Positions 14,366-39,976 of a stretch of DNA of 55,539 nt are shown here, piece by piece. The notes beneath the pieces were generated by a model. It saw only the letters and a program-made list of their open reading frames with translations, did no database searches and was not told the DNA's origin. Origin of the DNA: Bacteroidota bacterium (GTDB lineage Bacteria > Bacteroidota > Bacteroidia > Chitinophagales > LD1). The DNA lies in NCBI GenBank assembly GCA_026391075.1, contig JAPLES010000071.1:1-55539 (forward strand), given 5' to 3'. Position numbers and translations under genes: made by a program. How positions within the stretch are numbered: the stretch's first letter is position 1; the number at the start of each line of letters is the position of its first letter.

Positions 14366-14406
14366 GGCAATACAATTACTACATTCATACTAAAGAAAAT
14401 TCAACC

Positions 14407-25114: not shown

Positions 25115-25570
25115 ATGAATTTTCGCGGAGAATACGAATGCACAATGGACGACAAGGGGCGCATAAAAATGCCCTCTGCCTTGCGTAAGTTATTTCCTGC
25201 CGAGGAGAAAGGCACATTCATGATTGCGAAAGACATTGAAGACTGTTTGGTTATTTACCCTATGAAAGCTTGGGAAGAAAAGGAAGCCAGTTTGCGCGCA
25301 CTCAATCAAAGCGACCCGGAACTTCGTCAGTTTGTGCGCGCAAGCATGATTGGTTTAACCGAAGTGCAGTTTGATAATGCCGACCGTTTCTTAATCAATA
25401 AAGGATTAGCAAAATACTTGGGCAATAGTAAAGATGTGGTGTTGTTGGGTGTGTTTGACCAAATACAAATTTGGGATGCTGCCAAGTTAGAGCAATACCA
25501 AAACGCAAGTATTGGCAACATAAAAGGTTTAGCGGCTAAGGCAGCACAGGAGCAGAAAGAGAAAAGATAA
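25115..25570 (+). CDS. mraZ: Transcriptional regulator MraZ
   Basis: The protein has two AbrB-like SpoVT halves: residues 5-50 ('GEYECTMDDKGRIKMPSALR') and 80-125 ('TEVQFDNADRFLINKGLAKYLG', where DxxxRxxI repeats). It binds DNA as a ring-shaped oligomer and in E. coli represses its own division and cell-wall cluster. The 151 residues are normal. rsmH starts 3 bases after its stop. A likely operator lies at 25052-25076. Confidence 0.95.
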   Translation: MNFRGEYECTMDDKGRIKMPSALRKLFPAEEKGTFMIAKDIEDCLVIYPMKAWEEKEASLRALNQSDPELRQFVRASMIGLTEVQFDNADRFLINKGLAKYLGNSKDVVLLGVFDQIQIWDAAKLEQYQNASIGNIKGLAAKAAQEQKEKR

Positions 25571-25573
25571 ACG

Positions 25574-26491
25574 ATGAAGAAAGAATCTTCGGAATCTTCT
25601 TATCACACCAGCGTTCTTTTACATGAGAGTATTGAAGGGCTCCATATTCAGCCAAACGGCATTTATGTAGATGCCACGTTTGGTGGAGGCGGACATTCAA
25701 AGGAAATTTTGAAGCAATTGAATGAAAAAGGAAAACTCTTCGGCTTCGACCAGGATGAAGATGCGAAGCAGAATGCACCGAAAGATGAACGCTTCACCTT
25801 GGTTCAGGCAAACTTCAGTGAGCTGAAAAGATTTCTGCGATTGCACAATGCAATTCCTGTGGATGGAATTCTGGCTGACCTTGGAGTTTCGAGCTGGCAG
25901 TTTGATACGGCAGAACGCGGTTTCAGTTTTCGTTTTGATGGTCCGCTGGATATGCGCATGAACAAACGAGGTGATAAAACGGCTGCTGATGTGTTGAACG
26001 AAATGAATGCAGACGATTTGCAGAAAATGTTCAGCACCAATGGCGAATTGCGAAACGCAAAAACTTTGGCAAATGCCATTGTGGAAGTTCGAAACGGAAA
26101 AGCATTTGAAACGATTGCTGATTTACTGACGGTGTGCGAAGCGAATAGAATTGGAGAGCGACATAAATATCTGGCGCAGGTTTTTCAGGCAATAAGAATT
26201 GAAGTGAACGATGAATTAGGTGCGCTGAAAAAACTGCTTGAACAAAGTGCAGAGGTTTTGAAGCCGGGAGGAAGATTAGCGGTTATCACTTTTCACTCGC
26301 TCGAAGACAGGTTGGTGAAAAATTTTATGAGGCATGGAAATTTTGACGAGGAGCCGGTAAAAGATTTCTACGGCAACATTGAAAAGAAATTCAAACTGAT
26401 AACGAAGAAGCCGATTGAGGCAAGTGACAAAGAACAAAAAGAAAACAGCAGAAGCAGAAGTGCAAAATTGAGAGTAGCAGAAAGAATCTGA
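25574..26491 (+). CDS. rsmH: 16S rRNA (cytosine-1402-N4)-methyltransferase
   Basis: RsmH (MraW) methylates N4 of C1402 in the decoding centre of 16S rRNA. The N-terminus is 'SYHTSVLLHESIEGL', the SAM site is 'YVDATFGGGGHSKEIL', the family motif is 'DGILADLGVSSWQFD' with 'AERGFSFRFDGPLDMRM', and the C-terminal part has 'LAVITFHSLEDRLVKNFM'. Length (305) is normal. It is the second gene of the dcw-type operon, with 3 bases to mraZ and 7 to ftsL. Confidence 0.96.
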   Translation: MKKESSESSYHTSVLLHESIEGLHIQPNGIYVDATFGGGGHSKEILKQLNEKGKLFGFDQDEDAKQNAPKDERFTLVQANFSELKRFLRLHNAIPVDGILADLGVSSWQFDTAERGFSFRFDGPLDMRMNKRGDKTAADVLNEMNADDLQKMFSTNGELRNAKTLANAIVEVRNGKAFETIADLLTVCEANRIGERHKYLAQVFQAIRIEVNDELGALKKLLEQSAEVLKPGGRLAVITFHSLEDRLVKNFMRHGNFDEEPVKDFYGNIEKKFKLITKKPIEASDKEQKENSRSRSAKLRVAERI

Positions 26492-26498
26492 AATTAAA

Positions 26499-26873
26499 AT
26501 GGAACAGGAAAACATAAACGAAACACAGGAAGCAAATCAGGAGAAAAAATCTCCGAAGGGTTTTGCATCGCTGCTCGGCAAAATGGATGCCGCGGGCGAA
26601 ACAGGACTCAAGAAAGTGCTGTTCAATATGCCGTTTGTGTTGTTTCTGGTTGTGCTGGCTGCCTTGCACATTGCGAACAATCACATGGCAGAAACATACG
26701 CGCGCAACATCACTAAAACAGAAAGGGAAGTGAAGCAGTTGCGCTGGCAATACATGACGACCACGAGTAGCTTAATGCAAAAAAGCAAGCAAAGCGAAGT
26801 GGCAAAATTGGTAAACACACAAGGGCTAAAGGAACTGAGAATACCCCCTTATAAAATAGAAGTTAAAGAATAA
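26499..26873 (+). CDS. ftsL: FtsL-like cell division protein
   Basis: The 124-residue protein has an acidic/basic cytoplasmic N-terminus, one membrane segment at about residues 44-61 ('VLFNMPFVLFLVVLAALHIA') and a short periplasmic coiled-coil part ('RNITKTEREVKQLRWQYMTT'). That topology and its place between rsmH and ftsI match the Bacteroidota FtsL-like family. FtsL helps assemble the FtsQLB complex that activates septal wall synthesis. The sequence itself is weakly conserved, so position carries much of the call. Confidence 0.82.
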   Translation: MEQENINETQEANQEKKSPKGFASLLGKMDAAGETGLKKVLFNMPFVLFLVVLAALHIANNHMAETYARNITKTEREVKQLRWQYMTTTSSLMQKSKQSEVAKLVNTQGLKELRIPPYKIEVKE

Positions 26874-26981
26874 ACATGCTGAATCAAGTGAAAGCTCATC
26901 TCCTGAAAATGCTCCCGACAAACGGGAACGGATGAGCAACCACCGAAATTCGGAAGTATAAAGTATTGTCTAAAACGCACT

Positions 26982-29081
26982 ATGGCAGCAAACAAAAAAC
27001 GCGAAATCTTACTGAGAGCCTATCTGGGCTTCGCGTTTATTTTCTTATTGGGATTAGCCATTATTGGTCGTGCGTTTTACATACAAACGTATCAAGGCAA
27101 ATACTATCGTTCACTTGCCGATTCGCTTACCATTTTTCCAAAAACAATTTTAGCCGAGCGAGGAAATATTTACAGCGAAGATGGTCGCTTGCTCGCTACC
27201 ACTCTTCCTACGTTCGACATTCGTATTGATTTCAAAACAACATATCTGCACAAGGAAATATTCACTGATAATGTTGACAGTGTTTCGTTGTTACTCACAA
27301 AAATGTTTCCTGAAAAGAACGCAAGACAATACAAAAGCGAATTGGTTGCCGAGCGCAAAAAGAAAAGCCGTTACTATTTATTGAAGCGCAACGTTACGTA
27401 CAATCAATTGAACGAAATGAAGTTATGGCCCATGTTTCGTGAAGGCCAATACAAAAGCGGAATGATTGCATTGCAGGAAGACAAACGTTTGAATCCTTTT
27501 GTGCAATTGGCAAAACGTTCTATAGGTTCTATCAACGATAACGGTGGCGTATTTGGAATTGAAAAACAGTTCGATTCTATTTTGAAAGGAAAAGAAGGAA
27601 CAGTGATGGTGCAGAAGATTGCAGGCGGAGTTACTATTCCACTCGACAGCAAAGAAGAAATTGCTCCTCAACCCGGCAGAGATATTTACACTACGCTTGA
27701 TGTAGAATTACAGGACGTTGCCGAAGATGCACTCATGCGTGCTTTGCAACATCACGCTGCCGACCACGGCTGTGTGGTATTGATGGAAGTAAAAACCGGG
27801 AAGATTAAAGCCATGGCAAATCTCGGTTTGGTAAAAGATTCTACCTATGGTGAAATTGCAAACTACGCTGTAGGAGAAGCTACCGAACCGGGTTCTACTT
27901 TCAAGCTAGCGTCTTACGCCAGTATGATGGAAGATGGTTTGATAACCGCCAACACAAAAGTTTTTGTAGGTGATGGACATTATACCGTTTACAACAAAAC
28001 AATTTCTGACCACGATAAACCTGAAACACCGGAGTTGACTGTTCAACGCGCGTTTGAAGAATCAAGTAATGTGGCTGTGGCAACCTTGGCTGACAAAAAT
28101 TATTCCGCACTTAAAGAAAAGTTCTATAAGCATTTGGTTGATTTTGGTTTTTCAAAACCTATCAATATCGAATTGCCGGGTGCTGCAAAACCAATTTTGC
28201 ATGACCCGAAAACCTGGAGTGGTGTTTCTGCTGCTTACATCGCACACGGTTACGAATTAGCAATTACTCCTTTGCATACGCTGATGTTTTACAATGCGGT
28301 TGCTAACAATGGCACCATGGTTCAGCCGTACATGATTGCCATAGTGAAAGAATACAACGCCACTGTTGACTCCACTACCACCACTGTTTTGAATCCAAAA
28401 ATTTGCAGCGCAAAAACGATTCAACAATTGAGAGGAATGTTGGTTGGTGTGGTGGAGAACGGAACTGCCACAAATTTGAAAACTGATTATCTGCATGTAG
28501 CAGGCAAAACCGGAACTGCAGTTATTTCACAAGGGAAGAAAGGTTATACAAGCGAAGGCAAGAAGGATTACCGCGCTTCTTTCTGCGGTTATTTCCCTGC
28601 TGAAAATCCACAGTACAGCATGATTGTGATGATTAGTTCACCAAGTGCAAATGGTTATTACGGCAATGTAGTAGCGGGTTCAATTTTCAAAGAGGTGGCT
28701 GACAAAGTTTACTCCCTCAATTTGAATATGCACAAAGCAGTGAATGAACAAGTGGCTCTTGAAAATAAAATGCCCCGCATTCAGAAAGGAAATTCTGCCG
28801 ACATAAAAAACATCTATGCTTTCCTCGGAACCAAAGTGAATAATGTAAATACTGAATGGGCAACTGCATCAACAAACGGAAACAAAGTTCTGCTGGCAGA
28901 AAATGAAATCAATAATCAAACAGTGCCCGATGTAACAGGAATGAGTTTAAAAGACGCGCTCTATCAATTGGAAAGTTTAGGACTTAAAGTATTGGTAAGC
29001 GGGAGAGGAAACGTGATTAAGCAAAGTATAGTGGGAGAAAAAATTTCGAAGGGAATGTCAATCAGTATTGAACTAAAATGA
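26982..29081 (+). CDS. ftsI: Septal penicillin-binding protein (class B transpeptidase, PBP3) with PASTA domain
   Basis: This protein cross-links septal peptidoglycan. It has an N-terminal membrane anchor (residues 12-35), a dimerisation domain, and a transpeptidase domain with the active-site Ser305 in 'EPGSTFKLAS', the SSN motif at 361-363 and the KTGT box at 509-512. A single PASTA domain closes the protein ('VPDVTGMSLKDALYQLES'), as in SpoVD/FtsI proteins of Bacteroidota. The 699 residues are typical. The ATG at 26982 lies 108 bases after ftsL; that gap holds no gene. Its stop overlaps the murD start (ATGA). Confidence 0.95.
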   Translation: MAANKKREILLRAYLGFAFIFLLGLAIIGRAFYIQTYQGKYYRSLADSLTIFPKTILAERGNIYSEDGRLLATTLPTFDIRIDFKTTYLHKEIFTDNVDSVSLLLTKMFPEKNARQYKSELVAERKKKSRYYLLKRNVTYNQLNEMKLWPMFREGQYKSGMIALQEDKRLNPFVQLAKRSIGSINDNGGVFGIEKQFDSILKGKEGTVMVQKIAGGVTIPLDSKEEIAPQPGRDIYTTLDVELQDVAEDALMRALQHHAADHGCVVLMEVKTGKIKAMANLGLVKDSTYGEIANYAVGEATEPGSTFKLASYASMMEDGLITANTKVFVGDGHYTVYNKTISDHDKPETPELTVQRAFEESSNVAVATLADKNYSALKEKFYKHLVDFGFSKPINIELPGAAKPILHDPKTWSGVSAAYIAHGYELAITPLHTLMFYNAVANNGTMVQPYMIAIVKEYNATVDSTTTTVLNPKICSAKTIQQLRGMLVGVVENGTATNLKTDYLHVAGKTGTAVISQGKKGYTSEGKKDYRASFCGYFPAENPQYSMIVMISSPSANGYYGNVVAGSIFKEVADKVYSLNLNMHKAVNEQVALENKMPRIQKGNSADIKNIYAFLGTKVNNVNTEWATASTNGNKVLLAENEINNQTVPDVTGMSLKDALYQLESLGLKVLVSGRGNVIKQSIVGEKISKGMSISIELK

Positions 29082-30392
29082 AACAACGTCTCGTAATTCT
29101 TGGTGCAGGAGAAAGCGGTTTGGGAACTGCTGTGCTTGGAGTGAAGCAAGGTTACGATGTGTTTGTGAGTGACGGAGGAAAAATAAAAGACAACTACAAG
29201 GCGCAATTGAAAGAGTGGAAGATTGAATACGAAGAAGCAAAACATACGGAAGAAAAAATTCTGAATGCCGATGTAGTGATGAAGAGTCCCGGAATTCCAG
29301 AGAAGGCTGAGATGGTGAAGAAGATTCGCAAACAAGGAATAAAGATTGTGAGTGAAATTGAATTCGGTTCATGGTTTACCAATGCACAGATAGTTGGCAT
29401 TACCGGAGCAAACGGAAAGACACATCATGAAGAGCGGAGGAATGAATGTGGGCTTAGGCGGAAACATAGGAAAGAGTTTCGCCTATCAGGTGGCGACAGA
29501 AAACTTCGACTACTACGTGTTAGAGATTTCAAGTTTTCAATTGGATGATATTGAAAAGTTTCGCCCTAATGTGGCAGTGCTCACCAACATCACACCCGAC
29601 CATTTAGATAGATACAATTACGAGCTGCAGAATTATGTGATTTCGAAATTCAACATAACGAAGAATCAAAACGAGAAAGATTTTTTCATCTACTGTGCAG
29701 ATGATGAAATCACAATGGCAAACATGGATAAGTATCCAACCAAAGCACAGAAAATTCCTTTTGCATACGATAAAGAATTTGCAGAAGGCGGATTTGTACA
29801 AAACGAAAACATCATTATAAACCATAACCAAAACCAATTCACCATGAGTATTCAGGAACTCGGATTAAGTGGACGTCACAACGTTTACAACTCATTAGCC
29901 GCTGGCATAGTAGCTAATGTTTACGGACTGCGTAAGGAGCAGATTCGTGAAAGCTTATCAGACATGAAATCGCTGGAACATCGTATGGAGAGCGTAGCCA
30001 AAGTGCGCAACATCGAGTTCATCAACGATTCAAAAGCAACCAATGTAAATTCTACCTGGTATGCTTTAGAAAGCATGAACAAACCCATCATCTGGATTGC
30101 CGGTGGTATTGACAAAGGCAACGATTATACAGTGCTTGACCCGCTAGTAAAAAAGAAAGTGCGCGGTATGATTTGTCTGGGATTAGACAATACCAAACTT
30201 CATTCTGCGTTTGGAAAAATGGTAGACATTATGGTGAACGTAACTAACATGGGCGATGCTGTTCGTATGGCATATCAATTGGGTAACCCCGGTGATTGCG
30301 TGTTGTTATCTCCATCATGTGCCTCATTCGATTTGTTCGAAAATTACGAAGACAGAGGAAAGAAGTTTAAAGAAGAAGTGATTAAACTGTAA
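29078..30392 (+). pseudogene. murD: UDP-N-acetylmuramoylalanine--D-glutamate ligase, frameshifted at the P-loop
   Basis: MurD adds D-glutamate to UDP-MurNAc-L-Ala. Residues 1-115 read as a normal MurD N-terminus up to the ATP-binding loop 'GITGANGKT' (29402-29422). The frame then goes wrong, and the next frame continues with 'HIMKSGGMNVGLGGNIGKSF', 'NITPDHLDRYN' and 'LEHRMESVAKVRNIEFINDS' to a proper stop at 30392. Compared with the family spacing, about seven residues after GKT are missing, which fits a deletion of 20 (or 23) bases. Both parts are otherwise well conserved. The start overlaps the ftsI stop (ATGA). Unless the reads show otherwise, the gene as written cannot make active MurD, an essential enzyme. 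Confidence 0.9.
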
Positions 30393-30393
30393 T

Positions 30394-30428
30394 CACCTCT
30401 CCTAAATCCTCTCCGAAGGAGAGGACTT
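30394..30428 (+). repeat. REP-like element, copy 1
   Basis: The element reads CACCTCTCCTAAATCCTCTC and continues CGAAGGAGAGGACTT; it contains a small hairpin CCTCTCC/GGAGAGG. Its inverted partner is at 30498-30532. CCT..CTAAATCC..GGACTT elements recur between genes in many Bacteroidota genomes. Confidence 0.7.
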
Positions 30429-30497
30429 AAAGACAAATGCAAAATGCAGTGGAACTATTTTGATAACCAACAACTCTTCGTAAAGAAGGTTGTATTA

Positions 30498-30532
30498 AAG
30501 TCTCCTCCTTCGGAGGAGATTTAGAGGAGGTT
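30498..30532 (-). repeat. REP-like element, copy 2, inverted
   Basis: Read on the minus strand this gives CCTCCTCTAAATCTCCTCC followed by GAAGGAGGAGACTT, the same element as copy 1 with a few changes. The two copies face each other across about 70 bases, a REPIN-like arrangement. On the plus strand its end supplies AGAGGAGG just before the mraY ATG. Confidence 0.7.
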
Positions 30533-30536
30533 GCTT

Positions 30537-31790
30537 ATGTTGTATTATCTCTTTAAATTTTTAGATACTCATTACAACTTCCCGGGAGCGGGGCTGTTCA
30601 ACTTCATCTCGTTTAGGGCTGCGGCTGCGGTGTTGCTATCATTGGTTATTTCTATGTTGTATGGCGGAAATCTAATTGCTCTGCTTCGCAGAAAACAAAT
30701 AGGAGAAACAATAAGAGAGTTAGGTTTGGCGGGAGAAAATGCAAAGAAGGGAACGCCCACCATGGGAGGTTTAATCATTCTCGGTTCTATCTTAATTCCA
30801 ACACTGCTTTTTGCGAGACTTGAAAATGTTTACATCATCCTTATGCTTATAGCTACGGTGTGGCTCGGTTTAATTGGTTTTGCCGATGACTACATTAAAG
30901 TGTTTAAGAAAGACAAAAAAGGATTAGCTGGAACGTTTAAGATTATAGGTCAAGTTGGTTTGGGAATTATTGTAGGCACTACGCTTTACTTCAACAAAAA
31001 TGTGGTAACGAAAGAGGAAATACCACAAGGAGAAGTTTACAAATACGATAGCGAGAAAATTTCGAAGATTACCGATGACAACCTGAAAGTTCATTACATG
31101 GTAACCGAGAAAGCGCCTACTACTACTATTCCGTTTTTAAAAAGTCATGAGATTGATTACTCCGTGGTGCTTTGCGCCATCAACAAAGACTGGTGCAAAT
31201 ATGCCTGGCTCATTTTTATTCCCGTGGTCATTTTTATTATCACCGCAGTCAGCAACGGAGCCAACCTTACCGATGGCATTGATGGATTAGCCACAGGCAC
31301 GTCTGCTATTATAGGAGTCACACTTTTAGTTTTTGCTTACGTTTCGGGTAATATCATTTTTGCCGATTACCTCGACATTATGTACATACCCAACGTGGGA
31401 GAACTCGTAATTTTTATTGCTGCTTTTGTGGGTGCCTGCATTGGCTTTTTATGGTATAATGCTTACCCTGCCGAAGTATTTATGGGTGACACTGGCTCAC
31501 TGGCACTAGGTGGAATCATTGCCACACTTGCCATTATTGTTCGTAAAGAGTTACTCATCCCTGTCATGTGCGGTATCTTTTTAATGGAGAACCTGAGCGT
31601 GGTAATGCAGGTAAGCTATTTCAAATACACCAAGAAAAAATTTGGTGAAGGCAAACGAATCTTCCTGATGTCGCCTCTTCATCACCATTATCAAAAACTA
31701 GGCATGAACGAAAGTAAAATCGTTTCGCGCTTCTGGATTGTAGGAATTCTGCTCGCTATTCTTACAGTTGTTACGCTCAAGATTAGATAG
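30537..31790 (+). CDS. mraY: Phospho-N-acetylmuramoyl-pentapeptide-transferase
   Basis: MraY joins UDP-MurNAc-pentapeptide to undecaprenyl phosphate, giving lipid I. The signatures are '[13 protein letters not shown]', the catalytic '[16 protein letters not shown]', '[13 protein letters not shown]', '[12 protein letters not shown]' and '[12 protein letters not shown]'. About ten membrane segments are visible. The 418 residues exceed the E. coli protein because of an insert of about 80 residues after 'GTTLYFNK', which is usual in Bacteroidota. I prefer the ATG at 30537 over the TTG two codons upstream; AGAGGAGG ends 6 bases before it. It is the last cell-wall gene here: murE and the usual tail of the cluster are absent. 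Confidence 0.94.
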
Positions 31791-38849: not shown

Positions 38850-39976
38850 AACCGCTGCATTAGTTTTACGATGGCTTCTTTTTTCCAAACAGCAAATGTT
38901 CCTTCTATAATTTTCTTACGCGCCTCAGTAAGCAACCATAAATACAAACTTAAATTATTGATGCTCGAAATTTGCGCGCCCAACATTTCACCAGTATGAA
39001 CTAAGTGCCGAAGAAACGCTTTGGTATGTGTGCGCATCAATTCACAATCGCTTTCCTCATCAATAGGAGAGAAATCATCTTTCCATTTTTCGTTCTTGAT
39101 ATTCAGAATTCCCTGCTTGGTAAAAATCATTCCGTTACGTGCGTTTCGTGTTGGCATTACACAGTCAAACATATCAATGCCCAATGAAATTCCTTCGAGA
39201 ATATTGGCAGGTGTTCCCACTCCCATCAAATAGCGCGGCTTATCTTTTGGAAGAATATCACAAACCAATTCTGTCATTTCATACATGTCTTCATTAGGTT
39301 CGCCCACACTCAAACCACCAATAGCATTTCCTTCTGCATTCATAGATGTAATAAACTCGGCACTTTCTTTTCGCAGTTCTTTGTAAACGCTTCCCTGCAC
39401 AATTGGAAATAAACTTTGCTCATAACCATAAGCACCCTCGGTTTCATTGCAACGCGTGATGCACCTTTGCAACCAACGATGCGTTAAGTGCATGGAATTT
39501 TTTGCATAGGTAAATTCGCAGGGGTAAGGGGTGCATTCATCAAACGCCATTATAATATCAGCTCCTATTTTGCGCTGAATATCTATTACACCTTCGGGCG
39601 AAAAAAAATGTTTCGAGCCATCTATATGGCTTCTGAACTCCACACCTTCTTCTTTTATTTTTCGAATAGATGCGAGCGAGTGAACTTGAAATCCGCCACT
39701 GTCGGTCAGCATTGGTCTATCCCAACTATTGAATTTATGTAGGCCGCCTGCTCTCTCAATTATGGAAGTGCCCGGGCGCAGGTACAAGTGATAAGTATTA
39801 CCGAGAATTATTTGCGCGTTGATGAAATTCTTGAGCTCGTGCATGTGTACCGCTTTCACCGCGCCCAAAGTGCCTACGGGCATAAAGATGGGTGTTTCAA
39901 TTTTGCCGTGTGCGGTAAAAATTTCTCCTGCGCGGGCTTTGGTGTTTTTGTCTTGGGCAACTAAGTTGAATTGCAT
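38846..39976 (-). CDS. tgt: tRNA-guanine transglycosylase
   Basis: The enzyme exchanges guanine-34 for preQ1 in tRNAs with GUN anticodons, the first step of queuosine insertion. The active-site segment 'RPMLTDSGGFQVHSLASIRK' and the nucleophile region 'GIDMFDCVMPTRNARNG' are intact, as is 'AFDECTPYPCE'. The four zinc ligands usual near the C-terminus are not seen in full ('DFSPIDEESDCELMRTHTKA' keeps only one Cys; the other Cys positions have changed). The ATG at 39976 is preferred to the open frame start at 40024, because the family starts at 'MQFNLVAQD'. It is followed by the LptF/G gene with an ATGA overlap. Confidence 0.94.
   Translation of the reverse strand: MQFNLVAQDKNTKARAGEIFTAHGKIETPIFMPVGTLGAVKAVHMHELKNFINAQIILGNTYHLYLRPGTSIIERAGGLHKFNSWDRPMLTDSGGFQVHSLASIRKIKEEGVEFRSHIDGSKHFFSPEGVIDIQRKIGADIIMAFDECTPYPCEFTYAKNSMHLTHRWLQRCITRCNETEGAYGYEQSLFPIVQGSVYKELRKESAEFITSMNAEGNAIGGLSVGEPNEDMYEMTELVCDILPKDKPRYLMGVGTPANILEGISLGIDMFDCVMPTRNARNGMIFTKQGILNIKNEKWKDDFSPIDEESDCELMRTHTKAFLRHLVHTGEMLGAQISSINNLSLYLWLLTEARKKIIEGTFAVWKKEAIVKLMQRL

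What the first reader, a model, noticed from the sequence alone, without database searches (positions are those of the whole stretch)
29402..29430. murD has lost about 20 bases exactly at its ATP-binding loop
The first frame reads up to 'GITGANGKT' and then breaks; the second frame resumes with 'HIMKSGGMNVGLGGNIG'. By comparison with the spacing in E. coli MurD about seven residues after GKT are missing, and the frame change requires a loss of 3n+2 bases, so 20 or 23 fit. The rest of both halves is well conserved, so the lesion is recent or artificial. MurD is essential, so either the strain has a second copy, or the consensus is wrong. The lost stretch would encode a run of Thr codons (ACA repeats), a plausible place for a collapsed repeat in assembly.
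Basis: partly seen in the sequence, partly recalled or inferred. Interest (0 to 1): 0.62.

Follow-up and report, generated by a model that had tools for sequence, protein, structure and literature searches.

The report
Broken murD copy, probably consensus error
The only copy found of an essential cell-wall gene lacks 23 bases at its ATP-binding loop in this assembly; close relatives have them, so this is most likely a wrong or minority consensus and not a bacterium living without the enzyme.

Summary
murD (29078-30392) lacks exactly 23 bases relative to its nearest relatives, between 29420 and 29423: seven codons plus two bases just after GANGKT, breaking the frame. Of 17 other same-genus genomes searched, 16 have a full-length one-frame murD; the 17th (G012) is split between contigs with its loop intact. 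The own genome (98% complete) shows no second murD and keeps murC, murE, murF, murG, mraY and murI. Both halves show purifying selection. Even a bridged reading would lack P-loop residues. Likeliest: a wrong or minority-strain consensus; rival: a very recent real null allele. Reads would decide and were not available. The clean surroundings count somewhat against an assembly error. The collapsed-repeat idea is not supported: no repeat of four or more bases at 23-base spacing in seven relatives. Side lead: 11 near-complete genomes of one family in the same order have no recognisable murC or murD, and 9 of the 11 no murI match.

The parts
29078..30392 (+). murD (UDP-N-acetylmuramoyl-L-alanine--D-glutamate ligase), the only copy found in the genome, frame broken by a 23-base loss
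   Evidence: TIGR01087 matches in both halves; single match in own genome by DNA; only locus over the family cut-off
29078..29422 (+). first part in frame, ending GITGANGKT; the frame then runs out of register for 41 codons to a stop ending at 29548
   Evidence: profile 2-116 of 441
29420..29423 (+). deletion junction: 23 bases present in relatives are absent; placement ambiguous by 2 bases
29421..30392 (+). second part, in another frame, starting HIMKSGG and running to the stop
   Evidence: profile 124-439 of 441, 306.5 bits
26982..29081 (+). ftsI-type transpeptidase gene, whose stop overlaps the murD start; one open frame
30546..31790 (+). mraY, downstream; one open frame

Best explanation
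This is an ordinary single-copy murD whose assembled consensus lacks 23 bases at the P-loop. The living population most probably carries an intact murD; the shortened form would be an assembly or consensus error, or a minority or chimeric haplotype picked by the assembler. If the shortened form were the real allele it would give no working MurD: the frame breaks, and even a ribosome that bridged the frames would lack residues after GKT that belong to the ATP- and magnesium-binding loop and its helix (motif knowledge recalled). Shown: size and place of the loss, no second copy found in the assembly, pathway genes present, purifying selection in both halves. Inferred: that the population is intact.
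For: A single 23-base gap against the closest relatives; 12 distinct relatives compared all have the bases. 16 of 17 other same-genus genomes searched have full-length one-frame murD; the 17th, G012, is split between contigs with its loop intact. No second murD in a 98.1% complete genome (the weaker profile matches were typed as other ligases). murC, murE, murF, a murF-racemase fusion, an Mpl-like ligase and murG, mraY and murI are present, so the pathway still needs a D-Glu ligase. Codon comparison with G004: first part 20 synonymous and 0 residue-changing base differences in 114 codons, second part 48 and 7 in 322 codons; NG86 dN/dS 0/0.35 and 0.0096/0.30.
Against: The rest of the window is clean: no other uncompensated frame break in a conserved gene was seen over about 45 kb aligned to G015, so the assembly does not look error-prone. 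There is no tandem repeat to explain a collapse and there are no Ns in the window. A 23-base loss with 2 shared end bases looks just like a natural small deletion. No reads and no second genome of the same species were at hand; the tool says records of the same or a very near genome may be left out, so their absence says nothing. Two viral-contig scans for the local sequence found nothing.
Confidence: 0.82

Rival explanations
1. A genuine, very recent null allele of murD, fixed or frequent in the sampled strain, tolerated for a time (for example through peptide supply, another ligase, or a murD in the unassembled part of the genome).
For: The sequence as assembled says so and its surroundings are clean. 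The genome is 98.1% complete, so a little could be hidden. Some lineages of the same order have no recognisable murD at all.
Against: Those lineages also have no match over the murC cut-off and mostly no murI, while this genome keeps both. Purifying selection in both halves. No second match by DNA or family search.
Confidence: 0.14
2. A functional split or recoded MurD: two fragments, or a programmed frameshift, still make an active enzyme.
For: Both parts are conserved and an in-frame ATG at 29427 could start the second part.
Against: Seven residues of the P-loop region are gone whatever the frame. None of the 17 same-genus genomes searched shows a split at this point. The first frame continues with 41 unrelated codons.
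Confidence: 0.01
3. A collapsed tandem repeat in assembly.
For: The lost stretch begins with consecutive Thr codons in most relatives.
Against: 0 of 7 relatives tested has a repeat of four or more bases at 23-base spacing across the site; only 2 bases are shared at the ends.
Confidence: 0.03

Closest known systems
MurD, NCBIfam TIGR01087
   Same: Both halves match the family profile (2-116 and 124-439 of 441 positions); neighbours are an ftsI-type gene and mraY
   Different: 23 bases missing at the P-loop, frame broken
murD of the closest relatives G004 (L120/L039) and G015 (L121/L044)
   Same: 92.7% and 92.1% DNA identity, same local gene order
   Different: Their reading frame is whole
MurD2/MurL alternative pathway of Xanthomonas (PMC8788868, passages seen)
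   Same: A known case in which canonical MurD is replaced
   Different: No second MurD-type ligase was found here: of the ten murD-profile matches two are this gene, and the other eight are MurC, MurE (two pieces), an Mpl-like ligase, MurF, MurF-Alr, cyanophycin synthetase and FolC; murI is present. MurL itself was not searched for.

Membership tests
MurD (TIGR01087) | profile match over the curated cut-off | tested here: met
   306.5 bits for the second part alone, cut-off 211.95
MurD (TIGR01087) | continuous reading frame through the whole protein | tested here: not met
   two frames, break at 29420-29423
MurD (TIGR01087) | complete P-loop and following helix | tested here: not met
   seven residues absent relative to relatives
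Established pseudogene | relaxed selection or several lesions | tested here: not met
   one lesion only; dN/dS 0 in the first part and about 0.03 in the second against G004
Established pseudogene | intact functional copy elsewhere in the genome | tested here: not met
   no second copy found
Assembly or consensus error | reads disagree with the consensus at the junction | not testable with these tools
   no reads available
Assembly error by repeat collapse | tandem repeat of the lost length at the site | tested here: not met
   0 of 7 relatives tested
MurD2/MurL pathway | a MurD-like ligase together with MurL and no D-Glu supply | tested here: not met
   no further MurD-like ligase and murI present; MurL not searched

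The most novel reading that the evidence does not exclude
The lesion is real and the strain has just lost MurD while keeping the rest of the pathway, as a first step towards the state of 11 near-complete genomes of another family in its order, which have no recognisable murC or murD (9 of the 11 no murI match) but an Mpl-like ligase, and which keep murE, mraY and murG in the seven clusters examined. Scavenged peptide, or ligation of a ready-made dipeptide by the Mpl-like enzyme, would then replace MurC and MurD.
Probability: 0.03. Interest if true: 0.75.

Novelty: not a real feature. Interest (0 to 1): 0.1.

Why it matters
As an annotation note it matters little: this genome should not be read as lacking MurD, although an automatic pathway reconstruction could call D-Glu ligation missing. 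If the loss were real, it would mean an essential step can go while its neighbours stay. The side lead matters more: a group of genomes in the same order seems to make a cell-wall precursor without recognisable MurC and MurD.

Tried and rejected
Second murD copy in the own genome: family search and DNA search found none. The ten profile matches are this gene's two parts, MurC, MurE in two pieces, an Mpl-like ligase, MurF, MurF-Alr, cyanophycin synthetase and FolC.

Collapsed repeat: tested at 23-base spacing in seven relatives, not found.

Error-prone assembly: tested against G015 over about 45 kb and G004 over about 10 kb. Apart from murD, gaps seen in ORFs of 120 aa or more are paired, multiples of three or at gene ends; one group near 38850 where two ORFs overlap was not resolved, and an unpaired one-base gap at 14405 lies in a leader-like stretch at the start of an ORF. 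About 10 kb of the window had no long alignment to G015 and was not judged.

Apparently longer murD matches (about 1440 bases in L072, L073, L076, L082, L089, L092, L093, L101, L109): their open frames are of normal length (450-479 aa), so no insertion in the gene.

Truncated murD in G369: its locus holds 100 Ns, probably a scaffold gap. Viral contig scans for the local sequence: nothing. Paper searches (listings only): one search listed 10 of 12 papers, none seen to be on the point; searches found none; one search listed 5, none seen to be on the point.

In one search a motif pattern was too narrow (it demanded S or T before NGK) and missed the GANGK relatives; searches replaced it. In one search row L046 was cut off-frame and shows 39 stops for that reason; one search shows its loop intact. 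Row L130 is a partial match. The 20 rows beside the window's own (L119) are 12 distinct genomes, judged by matching contig lengths.

Full report
What is there. The window is a whole contig (C79, 55539 bases) of a genome of 3.6 Mb in 91 contigs, estimated 98.1% complete. The nearest named records are metagenome-assembled Bacteroidota, one labelled Chitinophagales and one Chitinophaga pinensis. murD lies between an ftsI-type gene, whose stop overlaps the murD start, and mraY.

The lesion. The closest relatives align to the whole gene with a single gap, 23 bases long (G004 92.7%, G015 92.1% identity). All 12 distinct genomes in that comparison have bases there. The relatives read GANGKTTTTALTYHIMKSGG; the window reads GANGKT in one frame and HIMKSGG in another. 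The point of loss is between 29420 and 29423. By general knowledge of Mur ligases (recalled) the lost residues belong to the phosphate- and magnesium-binding loop and the helix after it. A protein bridged across the two frames would still lack them.

Is there another murD? The family search gave ten matches in the own genome. Only the second part of this gene passes the cut-off; another row is its first part. The other eight are MurC, MurE (two pieces of one frame), an Mpl-like ligase, MurF, MurF-Alr and cyanophycin synthetase, and FolC. 'Mpl-like' is my label: NCBIfam gave only murC, below its cut-off, at the threshold used. A DNA search found one match, the gene itself. murI is present.

Has it decayed? 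Between the window and G004 the first part has 20 synonymous and 0 residue-changing base differences in 114 codons, the second part 48 and 7 in 322 codons. Counting only codons in which G004 and G015 agree and the window differs, there are 28 synonymous and 1 non-synonymous changes; in residues, the window differs from both relatives at two positions. So the gene was under normal constraint until very recently, or still is.

Is the assembly poor here? Over about 45 kb aligned to G015, other gaps in ORFs of 120 aa or more are multiples of three, paired, or at gene ends. An unpaired one-base gap at 14405 lies in a leader-like stretch at the start of an ORF. Gaps near 38850, where two ORFs overlap, were not resolved. 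The window has no Ns. This cleanness counts somewhat against an assembly error.

How common is a broken murD? Of 40 genomes including this one, 35 have a match over the cut-off, this one by its second part alone. The five below are G012 (split between contigs), G029, G031 and G032 (split frames) and G037 (57% complete). The three split genes break at or beside runs of 10, 10 and 9 A near residues 240-260, not at the P-loop. So broken murD frames occur elsewhere in assemblies of this order; no other at this site was seen in these 40.

Verdict. Most likely a wrong or minority-strain consensus in an otherwise normal essential gene (0.82); a very recent real null allele is the main rival (0.14). 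Reads would decide.

Side lead. Of 396 genomes of the order, 376 have a murD match at E 1e-40 or better; of the 350 that are at least 90% complete and at most 5% contaminated, 339 do. The 11 without are all of one family (f17 in the output), in six genera; other f17 genomes, such as G178, have it. A search of these 11 and two others with all candidates scored found 0 of 13 over the murD cut-off. None of the 11 has a match over the murC cut-off; each has one weaker match that resembles this genome's Mpl-like protein best. Nine of the 11 have no murI match at E 1e-10; G337 has one over the cut-off and G269 a weak one. Against a tight link, G369, which has murC, also shows no murI. The three controls with murC, G171, G178 and G205, have murI. 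In the seven of the 11 whose cell-wall cluster was fetched, mraZ, rsmH, ftsI, murE, mraY, ftsW and murG are in place and no ORF of 120 aa or more there has murD or murC as its best match. Enolase-superfamily proteins, the superfamily of dipeptide epimerases (recalled), occur in all 11 but also in this genome and in three of the four other genomes searched, so this does not discriminate. No neighbour of the Mpl-like gene is shared by all six genera. MurD2/MurL in Xanthomonas is a known alternative but acts on UDP-MurNAc-L-Ala, the MurC product (PMC8788868, passages seen). Searches (listings, an open-access library) showed no paper on this clade. The murC and murD absences rest on profile searches of draft genomes; a very divergent enzyme is not excluded.

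Noticed in passing
G077, G183, G225, G235, G351, G395, G130, G307, G120, G269, G337; loci L170-L176: Eleven near-complete genomes of one family of the same order have no match over the cut-off for murD or murC, and 9 of 11 no murI match, but each has an Mpl-like ligase; in the seven clusters fetched murE, mraY, ftsW and murG are in place. [quoted passage not shown]
   Followed up: partly
L140 (G031), L141 (G032), L142 (G029): murD frame breaks in three other families of the order, each at or beside a run of nine or ten A near residues 240-260: homopolymer errors, or possibly sites of polymerase slippage.
   Followed up: partly
window 30394-30535: The 142-base murD-mraY gap holds two palindromic arms (at 30409 and 30505); in G004 the gap is 26 bases. 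A search with 137 of these bases gives 38 matches in the own genome, itself included, so it is a dispersed repeat.
   Followed up: partly
window 25115-31790; G000:C24: The cell-wall gene cluster is split: murD and mraY follow ftsI here, while murE, ftsW, murG and murC are on contig C24.
   Followed up: no
L003, murE (G000:C24): The murE frame holds a run of 13 unknown residues, a masked stretch or assembly gap; left alone.
   Followed up: no
L144 (G369): murD second part missing in a locus with 100 Ns, probably a scaffold gap.
   Followed up: partly
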